Shown in pieces: positions 11,803 to 27,955 of a stretch of DNA of 64,000 bases. The DNA lies in contig NZ_KB906987.1 of assembly GCF_000381745.1 (NCBI RefSeq), positions 1 through 64,000 on the forward strand. Reading direction: 5' to 3'. The notes beneath the pieces are model-generated. The model searched no databases, was not told where the DNA came from, and was given only the letters and a program-made list of their open reading frames with translations. The position numbers and the translations under genes were made by a program. Origin of the DNA: Psychromonas ossibalaenae ATCC BAA-1528. Its GTDB lineage: Bacteria > Pseudomonadota > Gammaproteobacteria > Enterobacterales > Psychromonadaceae. The number at the start of each line of letters is the position of its first letter. Position 1 is the first letter of the stretch.

Positions 11803-11832
11803 AAAAAGCCTATTTAAATAACTTATAAATAG

Positions 11833-11871
11833 TAACAGACGGAAAAAGTTTGCCGACCAGACCGTCTGTTA
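11833..11871. terminator. Long inverted repeat downstream of the porin
   Basis: TAACAGACGG (11833-11842) and CCGTCTGTTA (11862-11871) form a perfect 10-bp stem with a 19-base loop. No T-run follows, so it may protect the 3' end or be a factor-dependent terminator. The rest of the gap up to 12183 is AT-rich with no gene seen. Confidence 0.45.
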
Positions 11872-12183
11872 AACACAGAATATAACTTAAATTATTTAAT
11901 GCAAAATAAACCCCTTCATTGACAGCATGTTCTTCTGTTTCTTATCTTTGCTTAATGTTGTTTTTCTTGTTTTTTAATTGAGCAGTTAGCTGTTTGTAAA
12001 ATTTAAGCTGTTAACTCGAACAGATATAAGCTGTATTCGTCTACCTGTTTATTCCGCCAAAATAGTGATGCTTTCATTGGCGCTGCGGGCCTGATTACGG
12101 TCTATATTATATATTATCGACATCACTAAATAGTCTCCTGTAAAGCTGGTGCTGAGATATTTACAAATGCGGAGTTGCAGATC

Positions 12184-13353
12184 ATGATTGTTGAGCAGCG
12201 TATTTCTGAAGTTTGCGTGGGTATGTATATTCTGGATATCACCTCCCCGAAAGGAAAATTCCATCTTGCTAAGGCTGGCTGGATTGAAAATGAACAGATC
12301 TTGAAAGGTTTTAGAAACAAAGGTATAGAGCGCGTCCTTATCGATACCAGTAAACAAAGATCGCTGACTAAACCTGCTTTGTTACCCGCAGAGAAAAGTA
12401 GAATCTTTTTTCAGCAGGAAGTGGTTAAAGCAAAACATGTATTTGATGAATCTAAAGATATCCAGAAAAAACTGTTTCATGACGCCCAGAACGGCTGCCC
12501 TTTAGATCTGGAGCCGGTCAGTAAAATCACCGATGAGTCTATGGATCTTATTTATAACAACCCCAGTGCGCTTGCCTGTGTGCTTAATATTCGTCGCAAA
12601 AATGAATACTTACTGGAGCATTCCGTTGCCGTTTCTGTACTGGTGACTATTTTTGCTTTTTTTATGCACTTAGAAAAAGAGACTGTCAGGCAGCTGGCTA
12701 TTGGTGCTTTTCTGCATGATGTCGGTAAGGTGAAAACTCCCGCCAAAATACTCAACAAAGAGGGGAAATTAAGCGACAATGAATTTGCGATAATGAAGCA
12801 GCATGTTATTCATTCTATTGATATTATTAAAGCAACACCGGGTATTAGCAAGCTGAGTTTAGAGACCGCGACTCTGCATCATGAAAAACTGAATGGTATC
12901 GGTTATCCCTACGGTGTTAAAGCCAAGCAGATTTCAGTTTATGGGCGGATGATCACTATCTGTGATATTTTTGATGCGCTCTCATCCAGCCGCTGTTATA
13001 AAAAGGGATATTCTCAGGTTAAAGCCTTCAGTATTTTACGCGCCTTAGCTGAAAACCATCAGTTAGATGCGGATTTAGTGGATACGTTTATCCGCTGTAT
13101 GGGGGTTTATCCGGTGGGGGCTTTGGTACAGCTGACTTCAAACAGGTTAGCAATTGTTGAATTTCTTAACCGTAAAGATCCTATTCGTCCCTGGGTGAAA
13201 CCCTTTTACTGTCTGCAGCCGAAGCATTTTGAAATTGCACAGGCTATCGATTTAGCCGTCGCTAAAGATGAGCAGATTGTAAAGTGTGTCAGAGCTGATG
13301 ATTTTGATTTAGATATGCACATGATTATGGAGTTTTTAGCGCATGAGGGATAG
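12184..13353 (+). CDS. HD-GYP cyclic-di-GMP phosphodiesterase with N-terminal DUF3391
   Basis: Residues 1 to about 60 match the DUF3391 module often fused to HD-GYP domains (VEQRISEVCVGMYILDI). The HD-GYP domain spans about 125-330 and keeps its metal and signature residues: HDVGKVKTPAKILNKEGKL (HD), HHEKLNGIGYP (HHExxxGxGYP) and CDIFDALSSSRCYKK. It should hydrolyse c-di-GMP in the cytoplasm, as there is no membrane segment. ATG 12184 is preferred because GGAG at 12171 is well spaced. An in-frame TTG at 12175 is the alternative. It is not obviously linked to its neighbours. Confidence 0.92.
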   Translation: MIVEQRISEVCVGMYILDITSPKGKFHLAKAGWIENEQILKGFRNKGIERVLIDTSKQRSLTKPALLPAEKSRIFFQQEVVKAKHVFDESKDIQKKLFHDAQNGCPLDLEPVSKITDESMDLIYNNPSALACVLNIRRKNEYLLEHSVAVSVLVTIFAFFMHLEKETVRQLAIGAFLHDVGKVKTPAKILNKEGKLSDNEFAIMKQHVIHSIDIIKATPGISKLSLETATLHHEKLNGIGYPYGVKAKQISVYGRMITICDIFDALSSSRCYKKGYSQVKAFSILRALAENHQLDADLVDTFIRCMGVYPVGALVQLTSNRLAIVEFLNRKDPIRPWVKPFYCLQPKHFEIAQAIDLAVAKDEQIVKCVRADDFDLDMHMIMEFLAHEG

Positions 13354-13418
13354 TTCTTTTCGGGCAAAGCAGCGTCCGATGTCGCCCTGCCTACTAGTAT
13401 CTTAGATAAACACTTGTT

Positions 13419-14387
13419 TTAGAAACGAACTTCCATACCTGCCAGGTAAGCAAATTCTGAATCGTCCATATCAGAGTAACCTACTTCTGCGTACACTATA
13501 ACGTTGCTGTGCAGCTGCTGAGTTACATTGGCGTAAACTGCACTGGTTTTATCATCTACACTATTTTCTTTTGGATTCCAGTAAGTGTAACCCAGTACAT
13601 AGGTGGTTTTATTCATAACATATGAACCGGCCAGAGCCGCTGTATCCACTTCAACTTTAATAGATTTGTCAATTGACCCCTGATATTCAACCTGACCGAA
13701 TGAAGCTGCAAATGCAAAATCATTAAAGACATATTCAACTTCAGCGTTATATCCGTCGATATTCACATCCATTCCGCCGTTGAAAATATCAAACTTGTTT
13801 GAGTGAACACTGTCGCCTGAGTAAAAATATACACGTGCATCTAAATCATTGAAGCGGGCACCAATACGGCCGTCATAAATGGTTGTTTGATTTTCTGTTG
13901 TTGATTTTCCATCGCTTTCTAAAAGAGCTGCAGCCCCTAAGTAGAACTGACCGTTGTCGAAAACGTATTTAGCAACTTGATCGCCGTTGTCTTGAACAAA
14001 ATCGATACCTTCACCGGCAAGTTCGTAATCTTTACCAATACCGGAATCATCGGCAAATAAGTTTTGGCGTCCAAAAGTAAGCGTACCGAAATCGCCGCCT
14101 AAACCAACCCATAGTTCATCGCTGGTGACATCTCCTGACTCCATTTCAAATGCGATACCTGCTACAGCATTGAGCTTTTCAGAAACTGCAATTGTTGTAT
14201 TAAGTGAAAGATCACCGTCATCTAGACGAAAATGTGCTTCACTGTCGGCAGCATATTCCTGGATGTATTGAATTTCAGCTGCACCGGCAAAATCGACTTT
14301 AACACCCTCTGTTTCATAGAGAGTGATCCCGGCATTTGCTGTGCCTGATGCGCTGATAACTGCTAGTGCTAGAAGAGTTTTTTTCAT
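13419..14387 (-). CDS. Outer-membrane general porin (OmpC/OmpL-like, gram-negative porin family)
   Basis: The 322-residue protein has a clear signal peptide (MKKTLLALAVISASGTANA). It then shows the pattern of trimeric 16-stranded porins of marine gammaproteobacteria: ITLYETEGVKVDFAGAAEIQY, DELWVGLGGDFGTLTFGRQN, an acidic constriction-loop region and a terminal strand FAYLAGMEVRF ending in Phe. It would allow passive diffusion of small solutes. It lies downstream of two secreted phosphoesterase genes on the same strand, but a 538-base gap with palindromes suggests its own promoter. A functional link to phosphorylated substrates is inference only. Confidence 0.88.
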   Translation of the reverse strand: MKKTLLALAVISASGTANAGITLYETEGVKVDFAGAAEIQYIQEYAADSEAHFRLDDGDLSLNTTIAVSEKLNAVAGIAFEMESGDVTSDELWVGLGGDFGTLTFGRQNLFADDSGIGKDYELAGEGIDFVQDNGDQVAKYVFDNGQFYLGAAALLESDGKSTTENQTTIYDGRIGARFNDLDARVYFYSGDSVHSNKFDIFNGGMDVNIDGYNAEVEYVFNDFAFAASFGQVEYQGSIDKSIKVEVDTAALAGSYVMNKTTYVLGYTYWNPKENSVDDKTSAVYANVTQQLHSNVIVYAEVGYSDMDDSEFAYLAGMEVRF

Positions 14388-14925
14388 TATATTTATTGCC
14401 TTTCTTAGTTATAAGGGAGTGCTTATCTGCAGCTTCCCATTGGTGGTTATATTTAGAGCTCTTATTTTGAGCTTCTTTTTTACAGCCCTGATCACCCCCC
14501 TGTCTCAAACAGCAGAGTGAATAAGGAATGAGTCATTGATAGAATTTGTTCTGACGGTGTTTATATTTGATTCTTTAAATAAAGATATTGAGCATCGCTT
14601 ATTTAAAGTTTTAAGTGCGGAGACTTAACTGATCGTAAAACGGGTCGGAAATATCAATTTTCTGTAGATATAAAAATAGCGTCCACTATCTATTTTTGGC
14701 TACCGGCGTTTTTTACCATCATAAGTATCGCTTTGAACACCGTCTTTACACTATCTTTACACTTCTCTTTTTTTTACTTTATATTGAGGTGCTTACCTGC
14801 ATTTTTCTGCATATAAAAATGCACAGAACATGCGGGACAGCACAGTATTATATTTCTATTATGTTAGCGCCTGCTTATCGTGTAGAAGGGAGGAAATAAC
14901 TCCCCCCTGAGTCTTTATTTTACAG
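14388..14925. promoter_or_regulatory. Porin upstream region with palindromes
   Basis: No convincing gene is seen in this AT-rich 538-base stretch. It holds two operator-like inverted repeats: CTTTAAATAA/TTATTTAAAG (14573-14582 and 14599-14608, perfect 10-bp arms) and AAAAATAG/CTATTTTT (14672-14679 and 14690-14697). It also holds an 11-base-period direct repeat TCTTTACACT near 14744-14765. These probably control the porin, but the regulator is unknown. Confidence 0.4.
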
Positions 14926-15786
14926 TTACTTGAAGCTCACATTGGCAATAACAGGTAAATGATCTGATGCATATATGCCGTCTTTTATGACGTTTTCATA
15001 CTTAAAGGTATTTACATTCAGCTGAGTGTTTACAAAAATGTAATCAATATCTTCAGTGGGCTCTTTACCATATCCATGGTAGGTATAATCATGATCATCA
15101 ATACTTTTGAATGGTGTTTGAGCTGCTGTTTTTGCATCTTCAAACAGATCGGTCAACGCTTTATAGGAAGCAGTGTCGCTTCTTTCAAAATTCAGATCGC
15201 CTAAAACGATCACCGCATCTGAGCCGTTTCCAATAATCTTTTCTGCTTTTTTACTTAATAAGCGTGCACTTTCCTGACGTGCTGTTTTGCCGATATGATC
15301 AAAGTGAGCATTAAAGACCAGTACGCGTTTACCCGTGTCTTTTTCTTCTAATCTCACCCAGGTGGTAATGCGGGGAAGTTCAGCATCCCAACCGAGACTT
15401 GCTACAACGCCCGGCGTATCTGAAAGCCAGAAAGTGCCTCCGCCTAATTTCACGTATTTATCTGTCCGATAAAAAATAGGCACCGCTTCGCCTTTTGTAT
15501 TGCCGTCGTCACGGGCAACACCAACCCAGCCGTAATCAGGTAAATTTTGAGCGAGATAAATAAGCTGATCGTTAAAGGGTTCCTGCAGGCCTGCAATATC
15601 AATTTTCTGCTCATCAAAAATAGAGACAACAATTCCTTTGCGGTTTTCCCAGGTGTTATTTCCATCGTAACTGCTGCCTGCCACGCTGTCTTTGCTGTTT
15701 CGAACATTAAAGCTCATTACATTAAAATCCATCGCAAATGACGGGGCTGCCAGTGTAAATAATAAGACTGCTGCTGTTTTTTTCAT
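14926..15786 (-). CDS. Secreted endonuclease/exonuclease/phosphatase-family hydrolase
   Basis: A 286-residue exported protein (signal peptide MKKTAAVLLFTLAAPSFA) with the full EEP fold signature: NVMSFNVRN at the N-terminus, GLQEPFND (metal-binding Glu), NAHFDHIGKTARQ (catalytic His), VLGDLNF (Asp/Asn) and ASDHLPVIA (terminal Asp-His). Family members cleave phosphodiester or phosphomonoester bonds in nucleic acids, inositol phosphates or sphingomyelin. The substrate is not visible. It lies 68 bases after the metallophosphoesterase gene on the same strand, so the pair probably forms one operon for scavenging from an extracellular phosphate ester. Confidence 0.87.
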   Translation of the reverse strand: MKKTAAVLLFTLAAPSFAMDFNVMSFNVRNSKDSVAGSSYDGNNTWENRKGIVVSIFDEQKIDIAGLQEPFNDQLIYLAQNLPDYGWVGVARDDGNTKGEAVPIFYRTDKYVKLGGGTFWLSDTPGVVASLGWDAELPRITTWVRLEEKDTGKRVLVFNAHFDHIGKTARQESARLLSKKAEKIIGNGSDAVIVLGDLNFERSDTASYKALTDLFEDAKTAAQTPFKSIDDHDYTYHGYGKEPTEDIDYIFVNTQLNVNTFKYENVIKDGIYASDHLPVIANVSFK

Positions 15787-15854
15787 TTTCTAATACCTTT
15801 TAAAGTTATGTATATAGGCCTGTTTGGCCCCGGTTAATTTAAAATATATTGATT

Positions 15855-17936
15855 TTATTTCAGGTCTTTAATCGTTCCTTTATTCAGGTCCAGTGTGAAA
15901 TGATCACTTGGATTGCCGTTGGCAAATTTTGTTAAAATTCCGAACAAGCCGCCGAAACGCTGCTTGAAGACAGTGCCGAACGGACTGTCGGCATTAATCG
16001 GTTCAGAATTAAGGTGCTGTGCGAGAGTTTCTGCCAGCAGGCTGTACTGCGGAATTCTGCCTCGCTGTACATCTTTAAATGCCAGCTCGTCAGCGTTGCG
16101 CAGGCGGTAGAAGTCAACGGCCAGGTCAAAACCGTTCCAGTCCGCGAATGCCTGTAGATTTAGATTAGATTCGGCGGCCAGTTCGGCAGCTTTTTCGGAT
16201 GCCTGGCGCCATGCTTTGTTAAAAGCAGGGTCTAGAATCTGTTCCGGCGCAAAACTGCTGTTTTGCTCCTGACAAATTTCTATTGCCTGACGACCTTTGG
16301 TGAGGGCGTTAACTTGATCCTGACTGATTGGGCTTTCAAGCTGACTGAGGATCAGCATCTGTCTGCCGTCTAAGCTGAATAACATCTGCTTTAAATCGCA
16401 CGGCCATTCTTCAGGAAGAAAGCGCATACGCGTTAGTTCGGTAATATGCCAGTTGGTAAATTCATAGTAGTTATGCGCGCCGAGGATATCTTTGTTCCAC
16501 AGCTTGTCTGAACCTGTCGCTTTGAGATGTTTCCACTCCTGCTGGTAGTGTTCGAAAAGTTCATCAAAACGGGGTACCTCATCCAGTATGACTGTTTCGA
16601 CTTCTACCTGCCCGGCTGGTTTAAATGTCAGTAGTTTGTATGCGGGAACGTAGGCAGCCATTGACGGCGCCTGAATATTGAATAGAAAACTACCGTCTTC
16701 ATAGCGTTTAACACCGGTATCGTTAAAGTGCATATGACCGCCGACATGCAGTTTGATACCGGTTTTCGCTAGTGCTCTGCTGACATCCTCTTTAGGAGAT
16801 CTGGCCATCTGGAAGTTGCCGGGGCCAAAGATATCTTCGATGCTTTCAGCTGCGCCGTTATAAAATTCAGTCATCGGGAAATGGCTGAATGCGACCAGTG
16901 TTTTGCCTTGTTGTTCAGCGCGTTCAACGATCTCTTTCATCCACTCAATCACATGCTTTTTATGGGTCAGCATTTTGTTATAACCTGCATCACCGGAGCC
17001 GGCGAAATTAGCGGCTGCCTGCGGCTGATTAAGATCTGCATCGGCTTGCGGGGTATAAACGTTGGCATCAATGGCGAGCAGCCAAAGCCCGTCGACGGGC
17101 TCTACTAGGTAGCTGGTATCCGGAACAGAAGTGCAGGAGGTATAACCTTCCTGTTTGTATTCACCACCCGTCCCCTGATGACAAATCTCATATTGACGCT
17201 GTGTATAAGCCGCTTGTTTACTGGCGGTTTTGAAATTGTAATTTTTTTCGTTATAGCTGGAATAGGGGGTTTCCCAGTAGACATAGTCCGGCTGCGGGTA
17301 AAAGCCAAAGTCTCCCAGTTCGTCCATCAATCCTTTATAACCTAACTCGCGGATCTCTTCGCTGCAGATTGTCGGCAGTTCATGTCCTGCATCGATTACT
17401 GCAGAGTCACCTTGATATCCCTGACATTCTTCAGCGCCGCGACTGAAGATACGCTGGGTTTTACCTTCTTTGCCTAAAAAGTCTGGTTTACCGCTAGCGC
17501 GCCCGAAGGGGCGAACCGGATCATGGTTACCGGGAGCAGCAAAAAATTGAATGCCGTGTTCTTTACTGTAAGAGTCGAGAATTTTCTGTAATCCCCGGGC
17601 ATTAACTGACTGCCCGTCGTCGCTGAAATCACCAGGTAAAGAGACATATTTTACGCCGCGTTTAACCACATCATCGAGTGCCGCAATGAGCGTAAAATAG
17701 TTTTCATTAAATAGACGGGTAGAGGTCAGCTGCGCGTACATACTGCGGATCGTTGCATACTCTCCACTTTTGCTATTTTTAATACCCTGATAGCTGCCGT
17801 CTTCAAACTGACCATATACGTCATGAAAGTGTATATCGGGCATAAAGGCAACTTTCACTTGTTCGGCCGCAGTTACTGAGGTGCATGCGCTGAACAGGAG
17901 CAGAGAAGCTAAACTGTTTCTGGTGAATTGATTCAT
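15855..17936 (-). CDS. Large secreted calcineurin-like metallophosphoesterase
   Basis: The 693-residue protein has an export signal. LFSAC around Cys18 could be a lipobox, otherwise cleavage follows TAA near residue 24. The metallophosphoesterase core shows PDIHFHD (Asp34, His36), LPGDFSDDG, APGNHDP, SHFPM and HVGGHMHFND, all five metal-binding blocks. Unlike short family members it has insertions around residues 150-290 (many Cys, possible disulfides) and a C-terminal helical region of about 220 residues of unknown role. It should hydrolyse phosphate esters in the periplasm or at the cell surface. It is the first enzyme downstream of leader-like ORF 17947-18630, only 10 bases away. Confidence 0.88.
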   Translation of the reverse strand: MNQFTRNSLASLLLFSACTSVTAAEQVKVAFMPDIHFHDVYGQFEDGSYQGIKNSKSGEYATIRSMYAQLTSTRLFNENYFTLIAALDDVVKRGVKYVSLPGDFSDDGQSVNARGLQKILDSYSKEHGIQFFAAPGNHDPVRPFGRASGKPDFLGKEGKTQRIFSRGAEECQGYQGDSAVIDAGHELPTICSEEIRELGYKGLMDELGDFGFYPQPDYVYWETPYSSYNEKNYNFKTASKQAAYTQRQYEICHQGTGGEYKQEGYTSCTSVPDTSYLVEPVDGLWLLAIDANVYTPQADADLNQPQAAANFAGSGDAGYNKMLTHKKHVIEWMKEIVERAEQQGKTLVAFSHFPMTEFYNGAAESIEDIFGPGNFQMARSPKEDVSRALAKTGIKLHVGGHMHFNDTGVKRYEDGSFLFNIQAPSMAAYVPAYKLLTFKPAGQVEVETVILDEVPRFDELFEHYQQEWKHLKATGSDKLWNKDILGAHNYYEFTNWHITELTRMRFLPEEWPCDLKQMLFSLDGRQMLILSQLESPISQDQVNALTKGRQAIEICQEQNSSFAPEQILDPAFNKAWRQASEKAAELAAESNLNLQAFADWNGFDLAVDFYRLRNADELAFKDVQRGRIPQYSLLAETLAQHLNSEPINADSPFGTVFKQRFGGLFGILTKFANGNPSDHFTLDLNKGTIKDLK

Positions 17937-17946
17937 TTTTATTTCC

Positions 17947-18630
17947 TTAGGGAACGGTTGTTAACAATGGATGGTTGTGAATAGGGTTGGTGGCTGTTGA
18001 ATTTTTTTGTCTGCTGAAAAACGCCGCTAAGCGGGCCGTTATTAAATGCACAATGTGATACAAATATTTTATGAAGCGAGGCTGGGAATCGGGATAAATA
18101 ATTAATAAAGTTATGTGAAAACAGGTGGTTAACTGTGAAATAAGGCTGAGAGTAATAGTCTGGAAAGAGAGAATAAAACGGGAAACTGCTTTGAGGAAAA
18201 TGGTTTGAAAAGAGAAAGTTAAGTGCGGGATGAGGTAAAAAGAAAATGCTGGTTCTCCTGCGTTTCGGTAGCAGCTGAGCATCTGGCTAGATGCAGAGTC
18301 ATTACAGATATGAGCCAGTAGTGCTTGTCTAACGCTGCGCAGTTTAACGGTACTATTGTGAGTTTCCTGTGAATTTAGATTATTTGATATTTTCCGGACG
18401 CGCTTAGCTGCAAAGAGCTGTTCACTAAGGCGTGACCACAATTTACTCCACTGTAAAGAGATATCATCGGCCTCTTTTTCGGAGTCTGAATTTGAGCCGT
18501 GGTTATTCAGATCTGCTTCCTGAGGTAAAAATAAAAAAAGGATATTTTTAAAAAACACAGCAGCAAGAGGAACTAAAATATCAGTTCCCTGCTTCACCCT
18601 GTTTCTTAAAAAATTTAATCTTTTTGTCAT
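17947..18630 (-). CDS. Leader-like small membrane ORF, divergent member of the QWSxxWS family (copy 3)
   Basis: I know no named family. The 227-residue ORF is a distant homologue of the ORFs at 19019 and 20814. It shares an N-terminal hydrophobic segment after a Gly (QGTDILVPLAAVFFKNI against KGIFISLLSSVVEFFI), the motif SLQWSKLWS against SEQWSALWS, and a C-terminal hydrophobic stretch beginning QTI (QTITLSLISQLTTCF against QTISALSFIVSVCF). As in the others, the 3' end is read in frame through a hairpin plus T-run (coding RLAAFFSRQKN, compare QAAVFFFALRK) and stops just before the next gene. It has a CRP-type promoter and a short leader. I infer a regulatory leader ORF for the metallophosphoesterase operon, possibly also a membrane protein. 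Confidence 0.6.
   Translation of the reverse strand: MTKRLNFLRNRVKQGTDILVPLAAVFFKNILFLFLPQEADLNNHGSNSDSEKEADDISLQWSKLWSRLSEQLFAAKRVRKISNNLNSQETHNSTVKLRSVRQALLAHICNDSASSQMLSCYRNAGEPAFSFYLIPHLTFSFQTIFLKAVSRFILSFQTITLSLISQLTTCFHITLLIIYPDSQPRFIKYLYHIVHLITARLAAFFSRQKNSTATNPIHNHPLLTTVP
18009..18040 (-). terminator. In-frame terminator at the end of leader ORF copy 3
   Basis: On the minus strand CCGC-TTA-GCGG is followed by GTTTTTC. The stem is short (4 bp), so it is weaker than those in copies 1 and 2. It sits about 80 bases before the metallophosphoesterase start and is read as ...RLAAFF by the leader ORF. Confidence 0.45.
18569..18588 (-). promoter_or_regulatory. Early hairpin inside leader ORF copy 3
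   Basis: GGAACT and AGTTCC form a 6-bp stem with an 8-base loop, 43-62 bases from the ATG. It lies at nearly the same place as the 11-bp hairpin of copies 1 and 2 (34-59 bases from the ATG) but has a different sequence. Confidence 0.4.
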
Positions 18631-18655
18631 TTTTGCAGCTCGTTATTAGTAAATT

Positions 18656-18710
18656 CCTAATTATCATAACAGTAATTTTTCAAATACATCTTCGACTTTC
18701 ATCACATAAT
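18656..18710 (-). promoter_or_regulatory. Probable CRP-dependent promoter of leader ORF copy 3
   Basis: On the minus strand, TGTGA-N6-TCGAA (18706 to 18691) is an imperfect CRP site. A -10-like TATGAT (18668 to 18663) begins 30.5 bases from its centre, close to the 29.5 seen in copies 1 and 2. The predicted start near 18656 gives a leader of about 25 bases. Confidence 0.5.
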
Positions 18711-18941
18711 AAAATAAGCGCCTGAAATTTATTAAATTGCTGGTTTAAGGTGGAAATTGTAACAATTTTATTTTTTAGTAATCAATTTTCAGGTCTGCAC
18801 TGGAGCATCTGCACTGCTTTTTTCTGTCACTTTATACCCGCAGGCGGCAAGGTTTGGCTGTAGATTCTGAAGTGTTTCTAGTGAGCTAAAATAATAAAAA
18901 AATAATGTCTATTAGGGCGTTCATTGAAAATTGCTGTGCAG

Positions 18942-18995
18942 AATTTGTGCGTTTCTTCACAAATTATTATGCTTTTATTTTGTACCATGCCCGCA
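18942..18995 (+). promoter_or_regulatory. Class II CRP promoter of leader ORF copy 1
   Basis: Perfect half-sites AATTTGTG (18942-18949) and CACAAATT (18958-18965) form a strong CRP site (core TGTGC-N6-TCACA). Its centre (18953.5) lies 29.5 bases before a -10-like TACCAT at 18983. That places CRP at -41.5 relative to an A at 18995, the class II position. The leader is about 24 bases. Confidence 0.78.
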
Positions 18996-19018
18996 CTTTT
19001 CGACAGGGATAATATCCG

Positions 19019-19489
19019 ATGAATAATTTTCTTAACGCTGTATTTATTTTTAGCAAAGGTATTTTTATATCTTTGCTAAGCAGTGTTGTGGAGTTTTTTA
19101 TTCTGCGAAAAACTAATCATCTGACTAAAGCCTGCACCGTGGAAGACAGTGAAGCAGATCTGCAGTCTGAGCAGTGGTCTGCACTCTGGTCCAGTGCTTC
19201 ATGTTTACTTCCCTGCACCAATAGACAATATGCGCAGCACAGTGATTTCATTTTGAAACGCAAAGCGCAGAACGCTTTTTATGTGAACCTGCATCTACAG
19301 CAGACAATCAGTGCTCTGTCTTTTATCGTTAGCGTTTGTTTTATCAATATTATTAAAATTTGTCAGTACAGCATTCTTGAAAAAAGTGATTTTATTTTCA
19401 AGATAATCACCATACCGAGAAAACACAGCCGCTTCCAAGCCGCTGTGTTTTTTTTTGCTCTCAGAAAAATTAAGGAGGTACCTATGTAG
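19019..19489 (+). CDS. Leader-like small membrane ORF, QWSxxWS family (copy 1)
   Basis: This 156-residue product of unknown family is homologous to the ORF at 20814. It has an N-terminal hydrophobic helix (NAVFIFSKGIFISLLSSVV), a polar middle with SEQWSALWS, and a second hydrophobic segment (SALSFIVSVCFINIIKICQY). The last part, RKHSRFQAAVFFFALRKI, is encoded by an intrinsic terminator. The reading frame is real: in the 28-codon block 19298-19381, copy 2 differs by 9 synonymous and 7 mostly conservative changes. The ORF ends ATG TAG right after a strong AAGGAGG, where the homologous copy 2 sequence starts a PTS gene. The next gene is a porin 108 bases on. I infer a translated attenuation leader. 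A membrane role of its own is not excluded. Confidence 0.68.
   Translation: MNNFLNAVFIFSKGIFISLLSSVVEFFILRKTNHLTKACTVEDSEADLQSEQWSALWSSASCLLPCTNRQYAQHSDFILKRKAQNAFYVNLHLQQTISALSFIVSVCFINIIKICQYSILEKSDFIFKIITIPRKHSRFQAAVFFFALRKIKEVPM
19052..19077 (+). promoter_or_regulatory. Conserved 11-bp RNA hairpin in leader ORF copy 1
   Basis: AGCAAAGGTAT and ATATCTTTGCT form an 11-bp stem (one G-U) closed by a TTTT loop. It lies 34 bases into the ORF. The hairpin sits within a 55-base block (19038-19092) identical in copy 2. Confidence 0.7.
19421..19456 (+). terminator. In-frame intrinsic terminator of leader ORF copy 1
   Basis: AACACAGC (19422-19429) pairs with GCTGTGTT (19442-19449) and a run of nine T follows (19448-19456). 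It lies inside the ORF and is translated as ...AVFFF. It would cut off the downstream porin unless read through. Confidence 0.85.
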
Positions 19490-19597
19490 GAAATATGCCG
19501 TTTAGGGGCATGTTTATTCAAATTCGCTTTACCGTCAGTCTGCGCGCAATGTCTGCGTGAGCAGGCTCTATTAAAATATAACTTTGGAATTTAATTT

Positions 19598-20707
19598 ATG
19601 AATTTTTTTAAAATATCTATTACAGCAGCCGCTATGGCTGCATCATTCTCAGCCGCTGCCGGGATTAATATTATTGATAATGAAAAAGGCAGCTTTTCTA
19701 TCGGCGGTGATGTTGAATTTGATTTGAACTATGAACAGAAGAGTGATGCAGCTGCCGGTGATGACAGCTCGCATTTTGATCAGACTGGACGTATTTTGAT
19801 TGAATTTGCAGGTGAACGTAAAACCGAATCCGGTCACTATTTAAAATTTAAAGCACAGCCGTTAATGGATAGTTCAGGTGCAGTTAACCTTGATGATTCA
19901 TGGTTTTCTTTTGGAGTGAAAGACAGCTGGGAGCTGCGTTTGGGACGTTTTGAGGCATACGATATGTTCCCTGTCGGTCAGGATACTTTTCTGGAATACT
20001 CTGGTGATACTGCGAATGATCTTTATACGGATAACGCCGGTTATATGTATCAGCTGAAAGAGGGACGCGGACGTGGAGGTGAGGCCGGGCAGGTCATGTA
20101 TAGCCACCGGTTTGCTAATTTATATACCGAAGTTTCGACTATGATTGGTGACCGCACCGAATTATTTGCAGATACTTATCACGGTAAAGCTCTTGAAGCT
20201 TCAAGTGACTCGATCATTGTTCGGCCTGTTGTGGCTTATCAGACGAATAATTTTCGCGTGGCCGCTTCAATGGAAGCTAATTTAGTTAAAGATGCGGTTA
20301 TATTTGCTGACGGTAGTGCCGGTGATGTCGGTAATCGTATCGGTTACGGTGTAACTGCCAATTACTCGCAGGGTGATCTTTCAGTCGATGTGAATGCTGC
20401 TTACCTTGATGCACTTAATGAAGCAGACTCCACTTTGGCTATGAATGTTTTATGGAAAGGGTTTGGGCTTGGTTATGTTTACGGAGTGAATGATTTTGAT
20501 GCGGCTTCCGGCTGGCATGACGGTAAAGTTGAAGTTCAGACCGTATACAGCTCTTATCAGTTTGCAGATATTTTTGATGTTAATGACTTTTCAATCTACG
20601 TTGGACTTTACCATACAAACCTTACCGATAAAGGTATTTCGCTTGCTAGTAATTTTGCTGAAGGAGATGATTTTGGCGGACGAGTTCGTTTTAAATATTT
20701 TTTCTAA
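19598..20707 (+). CDS. Outer-membrane carbohydrate porin (RafY/glycoporin-like)
   Basis: The 369-residue barrel protein has a signal peptide cleaved near SAAAG (residue 22). It starts its barrel with GSFSIGGDVEFDLNYEQ, shows the DSWELRLGRFEAYDMFPVGQDTFLEY motif common in carbohydrate-selective porins, and ends VRFKYFF with terminal Phe. It would import oligosaccharides across the outer membrane. It lies between two leader ORFs, upstream of PTS and alpha-mannosidase genes, so its likely cargo is the alpha-mannoside used by that operon. The ribosome-binding site is weak (GGA, 14 bases before ATG). The 108-base spacer before it has a small GGCAT hairpin (about 19492-19512). Confidence 0.75.
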   Translation: MNFFKISITAAAMAASFSAAAGINIIDNEKGSFSIGGDVEFDLNYEQKSDAAAGDDSSHFDQTGRILIEFAGERKTESGHYLKFKAQPLMDSSGAVNLDDSWFSFGVKDSWELRLGRFEAYDMFPVGQDTFLEYSGDTANDLYTDNAGYMYQLKEGRGRGGEAGQVMYSHRFANLYTEVSTMIGDRTELFADTYHGKALEASSDSIIVRPVVAYQTNNFRVAASMEANLVKDAVIFADGSAGDVGNRIGYGVTANYSQGDLSVDVNAAYLDALNEADSTLAMNVLWKGFGLGYVYGVNDFDAASGWHDGKVEVQTVYSSYQFADIFDVNDFSIYVGLYHTNLTDKGISLASNFAEGDDFGGRVRFKYFF

Positions 20708-20736
20708 ACTACTTTTCAATTAATTATCACGTCAAT

Positions 20737-20790
20737 GGAACGTGAATTTAATCACATATTTTAATAGTTTTATTTTGTATTATGCCGGCA
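20737..20790 (+). promoter_or_regulatory. Class II CRP promoter of leader ORF copy 2
   Basis: CGTGA-N6-TCACA (20741-20756) matches the CRP consensus at nine of ten core positions. TATTAT at 20778 is a good -10 and begins 29.5 bases from the CRP centre, exactly as in copy 1. The predicted start is the A at 20790, 24 bases before the ATG. Confidence 0.78.
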
Positions 20791-20813
20791 CTTTACGAGA
20801 GAGATTATATCCA

Positions 20814-21326
20814 ATGAGCAATTTTCTTAACACTGTATTTATTTTTAGCAAAGGTATTTTTATATCTTTGCTAAGCAGTGTTGTGGATTTTTTTCTTGTG
20901 CAGAAAAGTAATCAGTTTAGTGAAGCCTGCAGTATAAATCATAATGAAACAACTCAAACGACAGAACCTGTCTCTGAGCAATGGTCTGCAATATGGTCCT
21001 GCGCTTCTTTGTTATTAACCCGTAAAAATAAGCAGCGGGAAAATCAGGAAGCTTCTCTTTCGACGCAAAATGCTTCTTGTTTGTCTATGTATATTCAACA
21101 GACCCTAACGACATTATCTTTTATTGTTACAGTTTGTTTTATAACTATTATGAAAATCTGCCAGTATTCAGTTCTTGAAGACGCGGCTACTTCTTTAAAT
21201 AAAATAATTACCCCGATTAAACACAGCTTCCTACCAGTCGCTGTGTTTTTTTTTACATTAAACAAAATCATCAAAACACAGCTGCTGACAAGGCGCTGTG
21301 TTTTTTTTTACAGTAAATTAAATTAA
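20814..21326 (+). CDS. Leader-like small membrane ORF, QWSxxWS family (copy 2)
   Basis: A 170-residue paralogue of copy 1: the same N-terminus (NTVFIFSKGIFISLLSSVVDFF), SEQWSAIWSCAS in the polar middle and TLSFIVTVCFITIMKICQYSVLE as the second hydrophobic segment. The frame then runs through two tandem terminators (coding KHSFLPVAVFFF and KTQLLTRRCVFFY) and stops at 21326, ten bases before the PTS IIB start and overlapping its ribosome-binding site. The ATG at 20814 is chosen because it aligns with copy 1. An in-frame ATG at 20742 would lie upstream of the predicted promoter start. Placement suggests translational coupling or attenuation of the mannoside PTS operon. The function of the protein itself is unknown. 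Confidence 0.68.
   Translation: MSNFLNTVFIFSKGIFISLLSSVVDFFLVQKSNQFSEACSINHNETTQTTEPVSEQWSAIWSCASLLLTRKNKQRENQEASLSTQNASCLSMYIQQTLTTLSFIVTVCFITIMKICQYSVLEDAATSLNKIITPIKHSFLPVAVFFFTLNKIIKTQLLTRRCVFFYSKLN
20847..20872 (+). promoter_or_regulatory. Conserved 11-bp RNA hairpin in leader ORF copy 2
   Basis: Identical in sequence and position to the copy 1 hairpin (19052-19077). It lies within the 55-base identical block 20833-20887. Confidence 0.7.
21219..21254 (+). terminator. First in-frame terminator of leader ORF copy 2
   Basis: AAACACAGC (21219-21227) pairs with GCTGTGTTT (21240-21248), followed by T to 21254. It is read in frame as ...AVFFF. Confidence 0.85.
21273..21309 (+). terminator. 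Second in-frame terminator of leader ORF copy 2
   Basis: AACACAGC (21275-21282) pairs with GCTGTGTT (21295-21302), then T to 21309. It is a duplicate of the first terminator stem with a different loop, 28 bases before the PTS IIB start. Confidence 0.85.
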
Positions 21327-21336
21327 GGAAACATCT

Positions 21337-21645
21337 ATGTTTATCGTATGTATTGCAGCTTGCCCTACTGGGGTCGCACACACTTTTATGGCGGCAGAAG
21401 CACTGGAAGTTAAAGGCAAGGCACTTGGGCTGGAAGTTAAAGTTGAAACACAAGGCAGTATGGGGGCTGATAATATTATTACCGCTGAAGATCTTGCCCG
21501 TGCAGATGCGGCAATTCTAGCCGCCGATGTTGCTGTTAATGATGTGGAACGTTTTGCTGATATTCCTAAAATTGAATGCAGCGTGGCAGACCCGATTAAA
21601 CACGGTGATGAATTATTTGAGGCTCTCATTAAGGAGTTTAACTAA
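21337..21645 (+). CDS. PTS fructose-family EIIB component
   Basis: A complete 102-residue EIIB of the fructose/mannitol superfamily. The phosphocysteine motif CPTGVAHTFMAAEAL puts the active Cys at residue 9, followed by KVETQGSMGADN. It receives phosphate from EIIA and passes it to sugar bound by EIIC. It is a separate polypeptide as in the Fry/Frw systems, not a MngA-like fusion. AAGGA lies before the ATG, 10 bases after the leader ORF stop. Its stop overlaps the EIIC start (TAATG). Placement with a GH38 mannosidase suggests a mannosyl substrate rather than fructose. Confidence 0.92.
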   Translation: MFIVCIAACPTGVAHTFMAAEALEVKGKALGLEVKVETQGSMGADNIITAEDLARADAAILAADVAVNDVERFADIPKIECSVADPIKHGDELFEALIKEFN

Positions 21646-22760
21646 TGAGCAAATTTAAGAGTGAAAAGAAATCCATCGGCATTGAATTGAAAAATGCCAT
21701 TATGACCGGTGTGTCCTACATGCTTCCGTTTATTATTGCCGGTGCAGTGCTGATGGGCATAGCCCGTATCGGTGCCTCTATGTACGGAATCGATAATATA
21801 TGGGACGCAGCCCATGGTGAGTCTGCTAATACGTTTGTACGTCTTTTCCATGATTTTGATGGTTTCGGCGGCCTGGCTTTATCATTTATGCTGCCGGTTG
21901 TGGCCGGTTATATTGCTTTTGCAATTGCGAATCGTCCGGCGCTTGCGCCGGGTATGATCGGCGGTTTATTAGCGTCGAATCTCGGAACAGGTTTCCTTGG
22001 TGCGCTGGTTGCCGGTTTATTAGCGGGTTACATTGTTAAATATCTGGCTGCAAAAATTAAACTGCCGAAAGCGCTGGCTTCAGCCGGACCTATCTTCCTT
22101 ATCCCGGTCGGCGGCACACTGCTGGTTTGTGTCATTATGATGTATCTCGTTGGTGGTCCGCTTTCCAGTTTAAATAGCGGATTAGAAAACTGGCTGCTGG
22201 CGATGAGCGGCACTAACAAGATTGTGCTGGCGGCTGTTATCGGCGGCATGGTTGGATTCGACCTTGGCGGACCGGTGAATAAAGCGGCTGTTACAACGGC
22301 AATGGCACTATTAGCATCGGGTATCTACGATCCTAATACAGCAGCTCAAGTGGCCATTATTATCCCGCCGATCGGTCTAGGAATCGCGACCTTAATCTGG
22401 AAGAACCGTTTCCCTGAGTCACTTCAGGAAGCCGGCAAAGCCTCGACATTAATGGGTTTTATCGGTGTATCTGAAGGGGCAATCCCGTTTGCTATCGCCA
22501 ATCCAAAAGTAATCATTGTTAATGTAATCGGCTCTGCGACCGGTGCGGCTATGGCTGTCGGCCTAGGGGCTGTTAATAAGGCGCCTATTTCAGGTTTTTA
22601 CGGCTGGTTAGCTGTTGACGGCTGGTTTGTTTACGTTATCTCTATTGCTGTCGGCTCTGCCATTATTGCGCTCGGTTCATTACTGTTTTTCACCGGTGAA
22701 GCGATTAAAGCACCCGAAAAACCAGTAAGCGCAGCGCCAAAATTCGCACTTAAACGATAG
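21645..22760 (+). CDS. PTS fructose-family EIIC permease
   Basis: A 371-residue integral membrane protein with the fructose-family EIIC start (IELKNAIMTGVSYMLPFIIAGAVLMG). Further family features are PGMIGGLLASNLGTGFLGALVAG, GGMVGFDLGGPVNKAA and GVSEGAIPFAIANP, which contribute to the sugar site. It translocates and phosphorylates the sugar with EIIB. Length fits a stand-alone EIIC (about 350-415). Its start overlaps the EIIB stop by one base. An intrinsic terminator-like hairpin follows. Confidence 0.93.
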   Translation: MSKFKSEKKSIGIELKNAIMTGVSYMLPFIIAGAVLMGIARIGASMYGIDNIWDAAHGESANTFVRLFHDFDGFGGLALSFMLPVVAGYIAFAIANRPALAPGMIGGLLASNLGTGFLGALVAGLLAGYIVKYLAAKIKLPKALASAGPIFLIPVGGTLLVCVIMMYLVGGPLSSLNSGLENWLLAMSGTNKIVLAAVIGGMVGFDLGGPVNKAAVTTAMALLASGIYDPNTAAQVAIIIPPIGLGIATLIWKNRFPESLQEAGKASTLMGFIGVSEGAIPFAIANPKVIIVNVIGSATGAAMAVGLGAVNKAPISGFYGWLAVDGWFVYVISIAVGSAIIALGSLLFFTGEAIKAPEKPVSAAPKFALKR

Positions 22761-25456: not shown

Positions 25457-27955
25457 ATGTTAGATTTCCAGTTCACCTGTCCGTTAGTAAACGGTATTCA
25501 TGCGCGTCCAGCGACCGAAATTGAACAGCGTGCTGCTAAGTTTGAAGCACAAATCACTATTATGAATCTGAGCAAAGATACTACAGCTAACGCAAAAAGC
25601 GTGTTGTCTATGATCGGCGCCGACATTCTGTTTGATGATTTGTGTCAATTTGTTTTCCAGGGAAGTGATGAAAATCAGGCTTATGATTTTTTTAAAAGCT
25701 TTGTAGATAACGAACTTGCAGATATCGACGGCCCTGTAGAGCGCGCAGTCCCTGCTGATGTTATGCAGGATTTACCGTTATTCTTAGAAAAAGCACAACC
25801 GCAGTTTTTACGTGGTAAAGCAGCCAGCAGCGGTATCGGTCGTGGTAAACCGGTTATTATCGGCCAGATTGATCTGCACAGTATTGCCGGACAGTATCCG
25901 GCAGCAGACAGCTGTGAAAATACAAAAATGATTAACAGTGCGCTGCTTAAAACAACCACTGCTCTGGAATATGAAATTGAGCATGCAGGTACGGATGCGA
26001 AGGCGGTTTTAGATGCGCATCTGGCAATTATTAAAGATACGCAGCTGCAGGATACGATTAATAAACATATAGATGCATTCAATGCGTGTGCTGTAGTTGC
26101 CCTGGCTAGTGATGAAATCTGTCAGACACTTGAAGGCAGTTCAAGCAGTTATCTGCGTGAAAGGGCACTGGATATCCGTGATATTGCCAGCCGTATTGTT
26201 GAAAATATAACAGGTGAAAAAATCAGCACTGATCTGAGTCTGACAGAAGGCAGCGTAATAATTTCAGAAGGTCTGCTGACACCAAGCCAGTTGTTAGCTC
26301 TGCCGAAAGAGATGATTAAAGGTCTGGTGATGGGCGACGGTGGTGATACTTCACATACGGTGATCCTGGCCCGTTCATTTAATATCCCGACATTAACCGC
26401 TGTAGAGAAAGCGGTGCAGCTGTGCAGCGCTGCGCAGGAAGTGATTGTTGATGCCAGAGCCGGCGTGCTTATTGCTGACGCCAATGAAATGACCAACAAA
26501 TATTATCAGCTGGAAGCTGTTAAACAGGAGAAGATCGAAACACGTTTATCTAAATTTAAAAGTACGGCTGTTTCTACTTCTGACCAGGCTGAGTTAAATA
26601 TTTCTGCGAATATCGTTACCTCTAACGAGATCCTCTCCTCTTTAGAAGCCGGGGCCGACGGCATCGGTTTATTTAGAACGGAAATGCTGTTTTGTGAACG
26701 TGCCGTACCGCCGACTGAAGAAGAACAGTTCGAGCATTACAAATTTGTTGTAGAAAATGCGGCAGGTAAAAAAGCCGTTATCCGCACACTTGATATCGGC
26801 GGAGATAAACCCTGCGAATACATGGGACTGCCTGAAGAGGAAAACCCGTTCCTGGGTTACCGGGCGATTCGTATGTATCCGGAATACGAAGATATTATCA
26901 AAACCCAGTTTAGAGCACTGGTTCGTGCCGGCGAATTTGGCGAAGTCTCGATTATGGTGCCGATGATTTCAAATCTTGATGAAATCAAATGGATCCGCAA
27001 TATGCTTGATGTTGTTACTGCGGAAGTCTGTGCCGATATAAATAAAACCGTCAGCGTATCGCTGGGTATTATGGTGGAGGTGCCGTCAACATTATATTTA
27101 CTGGAAAAAGCCTCTTCCTATATCGATTTTGTTTCCATCGGCAGCAATGATCTTACCCAGTACTTCCTGGCCTGTGACCGTGGTAATAAGAATATAGCGA
27201 ATCTTTATAATCACCTGGATCCGAGTTTTCTGAGACTGGTGCGCGATATTATTGCTAACGCGGATCAGGCTGGACTGCGAGTCAGCCTATGTGGTGAAAT
27301 GGCTTCTGATCCGATTGCTCAGCCGCTGCTGATTGGAGCTGGTTTACGTAACTTCAGTATGTCAGCGTCACTTATCGGCAAATCAAAAGAGCGGCTTTGT
27401 GCACTTAATGCATCAGACTGTCGGGCACTTCTCGCAAAAGCGATTGACGCGGACAATCCGGCACAAGTCACTGCATTGGTGGAGAAATTCACGGCAGCAG
27501 ATAAACAGATGCCGATTATGTGTAAGTCGCTTATCTTTACTAAGCAGGCTGTTTCCAGCAAAGAAGAAGCCATTAAACGCTTAACCGATAACCTTGAAGC
27601 CGAGCTGCGCATTCCTGTTGCCGGTAATGTTGAAAAAGCAATCTGGGAGCGTGAAGCGGTATTCTCAACGGCATTGGGGTTTTCTGTTGCTATTCCGCAT
27701 TGTAAATCTGAGCATGTGAGTCAAAACAGCGTATCGGTAATGACCCTGGATAAAGAGATCGACTGGGGTAATGATACCAGTATTGAACTGGTGATCATGC
27801 TGACCGTTAGTAAAGATGATAGCGATGATACGCATATGAAAATATTTTCTAAGATTGCACGCAAGCTGATGCATGAAGATTTCAGAAGTTCGCTGATCGA
27901 TTCTGATAATCCGGAAAATATTCTCCACACTCTGCAGGAAACGATTGCGGCCTAA
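25457..27955 (+). CDS. PTS multiphosphoryl transfer protein HPr-EI-EIIA(Fru)
   Basis: An 832-residue fusion with three phosphotransfer domains. HPr (1 to about 90) carries NGIHARPA with His15. Enzyme I (about 118-665) carries GGDTSHTVILARSFNIP with His300, DGIGLFRTEMLF and SIGSNDLTQYFLACDR. EIIA of the fructose type (about 690-832) carries VAIPHCKS with His748. Order and length match E. coli FryA (831 residues). With EIIB and EIIC upstream, the operon holds a whole relay from PEP to sugar, independent of the general ptsHI. It begins two bases after the mannosidase stop, so the genes are co-translated. Confidence 0.95.
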   Translation: MLDFQFTCPLVNGIHARPATEIEQRAAKFEAQITIMNLSKDTTANAKSVLSMIGADILFDDLCQFVFQGSDENQAYDFFKSFVDNELADIDGPVERAVPADVMQDLPLFLEKAQPQFLRGKAASSGIGRGKPVIIGQIDLHSIAGQYPAADSCENTKMINSALLKTTTALEYEIEHAGTDAKAVLDAHLAIIKDTQLQDTINKHIDAFNACAVVALASDEICQTLEGSSSSYLRERALDIRDIASRIVENITGEKISTDLSLTEGSVIISEGLLTPSQLLALPKEMIKGLVMGDGGDTSHTVILARSFNIPTLTAVEKAVQLCSAAQEVIVDARAGVLIADANEMTNKYYQLEAVKQEKIETRLSKFKSTAVSTSDQAELNISANIVTSNEILSSLEAGADGIGLFRTEMLFCERAVPPTEEEQFEHYKFVVENAAGKKAVIRTLDIGGDKPCEYMGLPEEENPFLGYRAIRMYPEYEDIIKTQFRALVRAGEFGEVSIMVPMISNLDEIKWIRNMLDVVTAEVCADINKTVSVSLGIMVEVPSTLYLLEKASSYIDFVSIGSNDLTQYFLACDRGNKNIANLYNHLDPSFLRLVRDIIANADQAGLRVSLCGEMASDPIAQPLLIGAGLRNFSMSASLIGKSKERLCALNASDCRALLAKAIDADNPAQVTALVEKFTAADKQMPIMCKSLIFTKQAVSSKEEAIKRLTDNLEAELRIPVAGNVEKAIWEREAVFSTALGFSVAIPHCKSEHVSQNSVSVMTLDKEIDWGNDTSIELVIMLTVSKDDSDDTHMKIFSKIARKLMHEDFRSSLIDSDNPENILHTLQETIAA

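What the first reader, a model, noticed from the sequence alone, without database searches (positions are those of the whole stretch)
17947..21326. Three homologous small membrane ORFs, each the first gene behind a CRP-type promoter: a possible undescribed leader family
Seen: ORFs at 17947-18630 (minus), 19019-19489 and 20814-21326 share a hydrophobic N-terminal helix after a Gly, the motif QWSxxWS, and a second hydrophobic segment starting QT(I/L). Copies 1 and 2 are clear paralogues (KGIFISLLSSVV, SEQWSAxWS, KICQYSxLE). In codon block 19298-19381 they differ by 9 synonymous and 7 mostly conservative changes, so the proteins are selected. Each precedes a different functional gene: metallophosphoesterase, porin, PTS. 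I know of no family with this layout. Inference: a family of translated leaders or membrane regulators for nutrient operons.
Basis: partly seen in the sequence, partly recalled or inferred. Interest (0 to 1): 0.88.

Follow-up and report, generated by a model that had tools for sequence, protein, structure and literature searches.

The report
Leader proteins translated through transcription stops
Bacteria of at least three families carry, in front of a sugar-uptake operon, an unnamed leader protein gene of about 160-220 codons that runs straight through a built-in transcription stop signal, so that translating it probably decides whether the operon behind it is read.

Summary
The window is Psychromonas. 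Three ORFs (c1 17947-18630 minus, c2 19019-19489, c3 20814-21326) open three transcription units of one sugar locus. All three are conserved in P. aquimarina under purifying selection. The same leader family lies directly before the orthologous PTS EIIB/EIIC genes in 8 of 12 species of an unnamed genus of the same order, in Chimaeribacter and in Photobacterium. No match reached a cut-off in the protein and RNA family libraries searched.

In the PTS leaders the terminator hairpin ends 32-39 nt before EIIB. Long hairpins fold over the leader's start codon (Psychromonas) or Shine-Dalgarno sequence (second genus).

Best explanation: translation-suppressed attenuation. If ribosomes translate the leader close behind RNA polymerase, the terminator cannot form and the operon is transcribed; if not, transcription stops. 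This works like pyrBI, but with a long conserved leader protein of unknown signal; Psychromonas has related copies before porin and phosphoesterase genes. c1 lacks a 3' terminator. The membrane-regulator idea is weak. Nothing here has been shown by experiment.

The parts
17947..18630 (-). leader ORF c1 (227 aa), first gene before the metallophosphoesterase-EEP unit; its stop codon overlaps the next gene's Shine-Dalgarno sequence
   Evidence: no terminator-like hairpin in its 3' part
18505..18640 (-). c1 start-site hairpin spanning the start codon and about 30 codons (z -4.2; P. aquimarina -5.8)
18691..18706 (-). CRP-like site for c1 (2 mismatches to TGTGA-N6-TCACA); weak, such sites are not enriched in the window
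18946..18961 (+). CRP-like site for c2 (1 mismatch), about 65 nt before the ATG
19011..19117 (+). c2 start-site hairpin (z -5.6)
19019..19489 (+). leader ORF c2 (156 aa) before the RafY-type porin
19420..19456 (+). intrinsic terminator inside the c2 ORF (stem AAAACACAGC..GCTGTGTTTT, T run 19448-19456); the stop codon ends 33 nt after the T run
19598..20707 (+). porin (Pfam Porin_8, RafY type), downstream of c2
20741..20756 (+). CRP-like site for c3 (1 mismatch), about 65 nt before the ATG
20806..20912 (+). c3 start-site hairpin (z -4.4; P. aquimarina -5.7), with a base-pair-preserving double change between species
20814..21326 (+). leader ORF c3 (170 aa) before the PTS EIIB/EIIC operon
21219..21254 (+). 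first intrinsic terminator inside the c3 ORF (T run 21246-21254)
21273..21309 (+). second intrinsic terminator inside the c3 ORF (T run 21301-21309), 27 nt before the EIIB start; the stop codon ends 17 nt after the T run
21337..22760 (+). PTS EIIB (21337-21645) and EIIC (21645-22760), the genes that the leader family precedes in the other lineages
   Evidence: (EIIB)
15855..17936 (-). metallophosphoesterase downstream of c1; homologues lie on the same strand behind the leader and PTS genes in Chimaeribacter and Photobacterium

Best explanation
Each ORF is a translated leader that controls the genes behind it, in c2 and c3 by translation-suppressed attenuation. A CRP-type promoter starts the transcript a few tens of nt before the leader (inferred from sequence). 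A hairpin over the start region limits how often the leader is translated (fold shown by prediction, covariation in one genus; effect inferred). In c2, c3 and the PTS leaders outside the window, the leader's frame continues through an intrinsic terminator that stands between the promoter and the structural genes (shown in sequence). If ribosomes follow RNA polymerase closely through the leader, the terminator hairpin cannot form and the operon is transcribed; if translation does not start, lags or stalls early, transcription ends inside the leader (inferred, by analogy with pyrBI and with measured ribosome suppression of in-gene terminators, PMC4824070). The leader's conserved core (W-S-x-x-W motif and Q-L-x-C-x-R-x-x-G-E block) suggests that translation of the leader is itself the sensor step, for an unknown signal of the mannoside / phosphodiester pathway (inferred). 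c1 has no 3' terminator; there control would have to act through translational coupling, Rho or its start hairpin (inferred).
For: 12 of 12 PTS leaders examined (8 of one genus, Chimaeribacter, Photobacterium, c3 in two Psychromonas) have an ORF of 166-221 aa open through an intrinsic terminator hairpin ending 32-39 nt before EIIB, with stops at -10, +19, +71 or +98 relative to the EIIB start. Chance of an open tail by dinucleotide shuffle: 0.10-0.18, 0.27, 0.014 and 0.06-0.07 for the four lineages; about 3e-5 together if they are independent and if my choice of ORFs added no bias. Past the terminator the amino-acid sequence drifts (dN/dS 0.69 in the second genus) while the frame stays open, one leader with a 3-nt insertion there. 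The protein core is selected (dN/dS 0.06 for codons 96-126 and 0.09 for codons 39-70; neutral simulation P 0.0006-0.006 for codons 30-122 of c2/c3). In c3, 27 nt separate the last T run from the EIIB start, which leaves little room for a second promoter. The stem AACACAGC-N3..20-GCTGTGTT occurs exactly 3 times in the 5.2 Mb genome, all here. Start-site hairpins: the three leaders have the 3 lowest z of 45 ORF starts (-5.5, -5.4, -4.9; next -2.9); in the second genus 5 of 38 pairs show both-side changes against 1.0 in shuffles, 0 of 500 reach it. In Photobacterium (and probably Chimaeribacter) the phosphoesterase lies behind the same single leader, so c1 and c3 head two parts of one pathway.
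Against: No transcript, ribosome or protein data. c1 has no terminator-like hairpin in its 3' part. The openness of the tail is not striking in any single lineage except Photobacterium. The pattern scan did not list the c2 and c3 terminators on their own strand (their loops are longer than it allows); they rest on folding and on the pattern. The start-site hairpin is not seen in Chimaeribacter (z -0.18) and is weak in some members of the second genus (z -0.04 to -3.3 in the 7 of 8 folded); in Psychromonas the shuffle control for covariation is not passed (103-132 of 500), and in the second genus one of five measures is not (further pair types, 74 of 500); that structure was predicted from the same alignment. 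The covariance model of the c2/c3 hairpin does not match c1. A leader of 155-231 aa is longer than any attenuator leader I know of (recalled). The Photobacterium leader was not found by sequence search; it is assigned by position, motif and terminator. The inducing signal is unknown.
Confidence: 0.6

Rival explanations
1. The ORFs are ordinary small regulatory or membrane proteins acting in trans; the terminators only lower the expression of the genes behind them (partial polarity), and the start hairpins tune the level of the small protein.
For: Core under purifying selection; two hydrophobic segments in Psychromonas c2/c3 (KD19 1.8-2.2).
Against: The second hydrophobic segment is not conserved in the family. 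The gene sits immediately before the orthologous EIIB in all four lineages, and the frame stays open through the terminator although the tail sequence is not conserved. Psychromonas has three diverged copies, each before its own unit.
Confidence: 0.2
2. The leader is an RNA device: terminator and antiterminator are switched by a ligand, sRNA or antiterminator protein, and the reading frame is secondary.
For: Start-site hairpins; candidate upstream segments that could pair with terminator arms; nucleotide-level constraint in codons 1-29.
Against: Codon-level selection across the central 90 codons in two genera. No Rfam family reaches its gathering score. I saw no single alternative pairing shared by the four Psychromonas leaders in the listing, which was not an exhaustive search.
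Confidence: 0.12
3. The terminators are constitutive insulators and the downstream genes have their own promoters; the ORFs are remnants.
For: c2 is separated from the porin start by about 110 nt, room for a promoter; a porin paralogue on contig C9 carries only a decayed piece of the leader.
Against: c3: 27 nt between the last T run and the EIIB start. dN/dS far below 1 in eight species. Conservation across four lineages.
Confidence: 0.05

Closest known systems
pyrBI attenuator with leader gene pyrL (Escherichia coli)
   Same: Intrinsic terminator inside the leader gene; a ribosome close behind RNA polymerase suppresses termination (PMC4824070, passages read).
   Different: Leader 155-231 aa with a conserved protein core instead of a 135-bp leader gene (PMC4824070); pathway is sugar uptake; start-site hairpin; three diverged copies in one locus; no evidence on UTP.
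Amino-acid operon attenuators (trpL, hisL, leuL)
   Same: Translated leader plus intrinsic terminator before an operon.
   Different: There the terminator lies more than 20 bp beyond the leader gene (PMC4824070, passage); here the frame goes through it. I saw no run of one amino acid in the translations.
Nascent-peptide sensors (TnaC, SpeFL, MdtU uORF, SecM/VemP)
   Same: Conserved leader protein; a conserved block ends 12-15 codons before the terminator in 4 of the 5 leaders measured (L095 of the second genus, Chimaeribacter, c2, c3; 42 codons in Photobacterium).
   Different: No stall shown; much longer leader; intrinsic terminator inside the ORF. Basis: MdtU and SpeFL from passages of PMC7815308, TnaC from abstract starts, SecM/VemP recalled.
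Tandem attenuators of Salmonella mgtCBR
   Same: Leader ORFs thought to control transcription into the operon.
   Different: Two short ORFs. Seen only as a listing with the start of the abstract (PMC3641672); sequences not compared.
BglG/LicT antitermination of PTS operons
   Same: Terminator before a PTS operon.
   Different: I noticed no BglG-type gene among the window translations and recognised no RAT-like element by eye; recalled, not searched systematically.

Membership tests
pyrBI-type attenuator (mechanism class: translation-suppressed intrinsic terminator in the leader gene) | Intrinsic terminator lies inside the leader ORF and the stop codon is beyond it | tested here: met
   12 of 12 PTS leaders and c2; not c1
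pyrBI-type attenuator (mechanism class: translation-suppressed intrinsic terminator in the leader gene) | Leader is translated | tested here: inconclusive
   Purifying selection at codon level supports it; no ribosome data
pyrBI-type attenuator (mechanism class: translation-suppressed intrinsic terminator in the leader gene) | Termination relieved when the ribosome follows RNA polymerase closely | not testable with these tools
   needs reporter and 3'-end mapping
pyrBI operon itself | Controls pyrimidine genes | tested here: not met
   Downstream genes are PTS, porin and phosphoesterase
pyrBI operon itself | UTP-sensitive pause in the leader (recalled) | not tested
   none
trp/his-type attenuator | Leader stop codon upstream of the terminator | tested here: not met
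   Stop lies beyond the terminator
Known protein family (Pfam, NCBIfam, PHROGs, PDB) | Match at or above the curated cut-off, or a significant E-value | tested here: not met
   Pfam: 3 window proteins and 7 relatives, best E 0.02, below cut-offs; NCBIfam: 6 and 4 proteins, best E 0.025, below cut-offs; PHROGs: 3 window proteins, none; PDB profiles A2 and A10, none to E 1
Known RNA family (Rfam 15) | Score at or above the gathering threshold | tested here: not met
   window 17900-21700 only: 7 matches up to E 10, all below gathering scores; the other lineages were not searched
Nascent-chain arrest leader | Ribosome stalls at a defined codon in response to a signal | not testable with these tools
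   only geometry available

The most novel reading that the evidence does not exclude
The leader protein is a nascent-chain sensor for a carbohydrate signal. Its conserved Q-L-x-C-x-R-x-x-G-E block ends 12-15 codons before the terminator in most lineages, so it would lie in the ribosome exit tunnel just as the ribosome reaches the terminator. The signal (sugar phosphate, PTS state, or insertion of the leader's N-terminus) would set whether the ribosome presses on and keeps RNA polymerase going. One sensor cassette was copied before porin, phosphodiesterase and PTS units of one pathway, as a regulon-wide leader.
Probability: 0.2. Interest if true: 0.88.

Novelty: new variant of a known kind. 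Interest (0 to 1): 0.74.

Why it matters
The textbook case that I know of attenuation by a ribosome translating through a terminator is pyrBI (recalled). This would be an independent and more elaborate case, for sugar uptake, with a long conserved leader protein that no searched library names; the held gene table of the Chimaeribacter plasmid, which is incomplete, lists no gene there. It suggests that a leader cassette can be copied before several operons of one pathway. It is directly testable with reporter fusions in E. coli K-12, and it suggests a search rule: find conserved ORFs that stay open through an intrinsic terminator just before an operon.

Tried and rejected
Membrane regulator: not accepted as the family-wide function because the second hydrophobic segment is not conserved; a hydrophobic stretch at about codon 133 in the second genus (KD19 1.3-1.9) covers the terminator. 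AlphaFold2 model of c3 from four sequences: mean pLDDT 38.9, not used, so no fold search was made. RNA thermometer: computed start-codon accessibility rises with temperature in c3w, c2g and slightly in c2w, but stays at 0.04 or less in c3g, c1w and c1g up to 45 C; not pursued. Antiterminator pairing upstream: candidates differ between copies. Phage or plasmid origin: no match with the c3 protein, none in viral contigs with the c2/c3 alignment. Weak hits with stops in other genomes (for example G070 at E 1.2e-4, G285) treated as chance. Covariance model of the c2/c3 start hairpin: in 24 genomes of the genus only the four known copies at E below 0.1 (next 0.19). Ten other GH38 or porin loci (L063-L072) show no ORF with the motif. 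Of the 12 plasmid-collection records with the EIIC I looked upstream in three: Photobacterium and Chimaeribacter have the leader, one Listeria record has EIIA and regulator-like ORFs instead; the other nine were not examined. Literature: searches listed no paper that I recognised as dealing with these leaders; the library holds open-licence papers only.
Full report
WHAT IS THERE. The three ORFs exist as stated. I call them c1 (17947-18630, minus), c2 (19019-19489) and c3 (20814-21326). Downstream of each lies a different unit: a metallophosphoesterase and an endonuclease/exonuclease/phosphatase protein (c1), a RafY-type porin (c2), and PTS EIIB/EIIC, a GH38-type mannosidase, a fused HPr/enzyme I/EIIA, a transporter and a ManA-like gene (c3). 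Pfam supports the first three and EIIB and the fusion protein; EIIC, mannosidase, transporter and ManA are named from their sequence by recall, with support for EIIC and GH38 from annotated relatives. Aligned blocks with P. aquimarina over the locus are 87-90% identical and colinear, and all three ORFs are open there.

CODING. NG86 dN/dS against P. aquimarina is .12/.32.10/.38 and .065/.166 for c1, c2, c3. A neutral simulation with the same substitutions placed at random gives P 0.011, 0.0004 and 0.0048 for the observed share of nonsynonymous codons, and produces a stop codon in 98%, 86% and 80% of runs, where none is seen. In c2 and c3 the signal sits in codons 30-122 (P 0.0006-0.006 in orthologue and paralogue comparisons). 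Codons 1-29 are conserved as nucleotides instead (0-1 synonymous against 5-8 nonsynonymous codon differences in four paralogue pairs). The tail beyond codon 122 shows no protein selection (P 0.10-0.50).

RNA ELEMENTS. c2 carries one and c3 two intrinsic terminators inside the ORF, all with the stem AACACAGC...GCTGTGTT followed by nine T. The consensus scan did not list them on their own strand because their loops are longer than it allows. The stem pattern occurs exactly three times in the 5.2 Mb genome, all here. In c3, 27 nt separate the last T run from the EIIB start codon. c1 has no comparable hairpin in its 3' part; its strongest hairpin before a T run is its own start hairpin. The start of each ORF folds into a long hairpin that includes the start codon: z -4.2 to -5.8 in six of six sequences. 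Among 45 ORF starts (44 of the 45 ORFs of at least 150 aa, one antisense ORF left out, plus EIIB) the three leaders have the three lowest z-scores (-5.5, -5.4, -4.9; next -2.9). In a scan of 2130 stretches 18 had z of -4 or less, including one at each of the three leader starts. c3 of the two species keeps one pair by changes on both sides, but with four sequences the shuffle control is not passed (103-132 of 500). In c1, of 9 pairs that differ between the species 6 remain paired through G-U and 3 are unpaired in one species.

RELATIVES. By c3 protein or c2/c3 profile, full-length matches came only from the two Psychromonas: 2 of 24 genus genomes, 2 of 394 order genomes, 1 of 398 phylum genomes (own); none in plasmids or phages (c3 protein) or viral contigs; only P. 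aquimarina in the GTDB contig scan. The c1 profile opened the family. Of the 392 other genomes in the order sample, three had a match at E 0.001 or better; two of them (G305 E 5.8e-5, G129 E 4.1e-4) are open ORFs immediately before the orthologous EIIB/EIIC, the third (G285) holds stops and is taken as chance. G305 and G129 are also the only other genomes of 394 with that EIIC at E 1e-120 or better, so all four genomes with the EIIC have the leader. In their genus 8 of 12 species have the leader; the PTS was not searched separately in the other four. The genus is unnamed here. The plasmid collection added Chimaeribacter arupi (34% identity to the G305 leader, E 7e-17; the held gene table, which is incomplete, lists no gene there) and Photobacterium sp. 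DA100. The Photobacterium leader is assigned by position, the QWSGMW motif and its in-ORF terminator, not by a sequence hit. In Photobacterium one leader stands before EIIB, EIIC, phosphoesterase (74% identical to the window's) and EEP (69%) on one strand; in Chimaeribacter a phosphoesterase (56%) follows the PTS genes on the same strand. So c1 and c3 in Psychromonas appear to head two parts of one pathway. Chimaeribacter and the unnamed genus may belong to one family in some taxonomies, so I count at least three families.

ANATOMY ACROSS LINEAGES. In 12 of 12 PTS leaders the ORF (166-221 aa) reads through an intrinsic terminator hairpin that ends 32-39 nt before EIIB (counted with its first T residues); the ORF stops at -10 (Psychromonas), +19 (all eight of the second genus), +71 (Chimaeribacter) or +98 (Photobacterium) relative to the EIIB start. 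Dinucleotide shuffles give a chance of an open tail of 0.06-0.07, 0.10-0.18, 0.27 and 0.014 for these lineages, and 0.13 for c2. These numbers do not allow for my having picked the ORFs and their starts by eye. In the second genus dN/dS is 0.20 overall, 0.09 around GWSRLW (codons 39-70), 0.06 for codons 96-126, 0.37 for codons 71-95, 0.43 over the terminator (few changes) and 0.69 beyond it. So the core is kept as protein, the terminator as nucleotides, and the rest of the tail only as an open frame. The best CRP-like site within 110 nt upstream matches 9 of 10 positions in ten leaders and 8 of 10 in Chimaeribacter and Photobacterium, 59-72 nt before the start (no chance control). In the second genus a start-region hairpin pairs the Shine-Dalgarno sequence; 5 of 38 pairs show both-side changes against 1.0 in shuffles (0 of 500 reach it, covariation score likewise, but 74 of 500 for further pair types; relatedness is not controlled by that test, and the structure was predicted from the same alignment). 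Individual z-scores run from -0.04 to -3.3 (7 of 8 folded), Photobacterium -3.6 or -2.3 by length folded, and Chimaeribacter shows no such fold (-0.18).

MECHANISM. Intrinsic terminators in the latter part of a coding region are suppressed by a closely following ribosome, and the pyrBI terminator lies inside its 135-bp leader gene (PMC4824070, passages read). In amino-acid attenuators the terminator lies more than 20 bp beyond the leader gene (same paper). The present leaders have the first arrangement. I conclude: CRP-driven transcription, leader translation gated by the start hairpin, terminator suppressed by the translating ribosome, operon expressed. What varies with the environment is unknown. 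The conserved block before the terminator ends 12-15 codons ahead of it in the G305 leader, Chimaeribacter, c2 and c3 and 42 in Photobacterium, which would allow but does not show nascent-chain sensing.

HISTORY. A porin paralogue on contig C9 keeps a decayed piece of the c2 leader's 3' end without the ORF core or a complete terminator, consistent with leader and porin having been copied together and the leader lost where the porin joined another operon (inference).

VERDICT. Real, conserved, unnamed in the libraries searched, and most likely a new variant of translation-suppressed attenuation. Unproven at the bench.

Noticed in passing
L064 (G000:C9:58000-64500), upstream of the porin at 4184: A porin paralogue carries a decayed remnant of the c2 leader's 3' end, lacking the ORF core and one arm of the terminator.
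   Followed up: partly
window 19473-19489: c2 ends in a start-stop pair ATG-TAG behind a strong Shine-Dalgarno sequence (AAGGAGG); kept in P. aquimarina and, slightly altered, in the C9 remnant. By alignment it corresponds to the EIIB start of c3.
   Followed up: partly
window 14926-17936: The metallophosphoesterase and EEP-family protein have homologues behind the mannoside-type PTS genes in Photobacterium, which suggests a phosphodiester-linked substrate.
   Followed up: partly
L104 (Chimaeribacter plasmid) 12642-15174 and 11006-12574: The GH38 and the HPr/enzyme I homologues match in two pieces each on this plasmid, which also carries a class A beta-lactamase gene; described only.
   Followed up: no
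window 25457-27955: HPr, enzyme I and EIIA domains fused in one 832-aa protein in the c3 operon.
   Followed up: no
own genome contigs C30, C49, C86: Three further GH38 mannosidase homologues, near PTS or porin genes, without a leader ORF bearing the motif.
   Followed up: partly
window, minus strand, near 18545-18560 (in c1): c1's start hairpin contains GCTGTGTTTTTT, nearly the letters of the 3' arm of the c2/c3 terminators; a trans-acting pairing is imaginable but was not tested.
   Followed up: no
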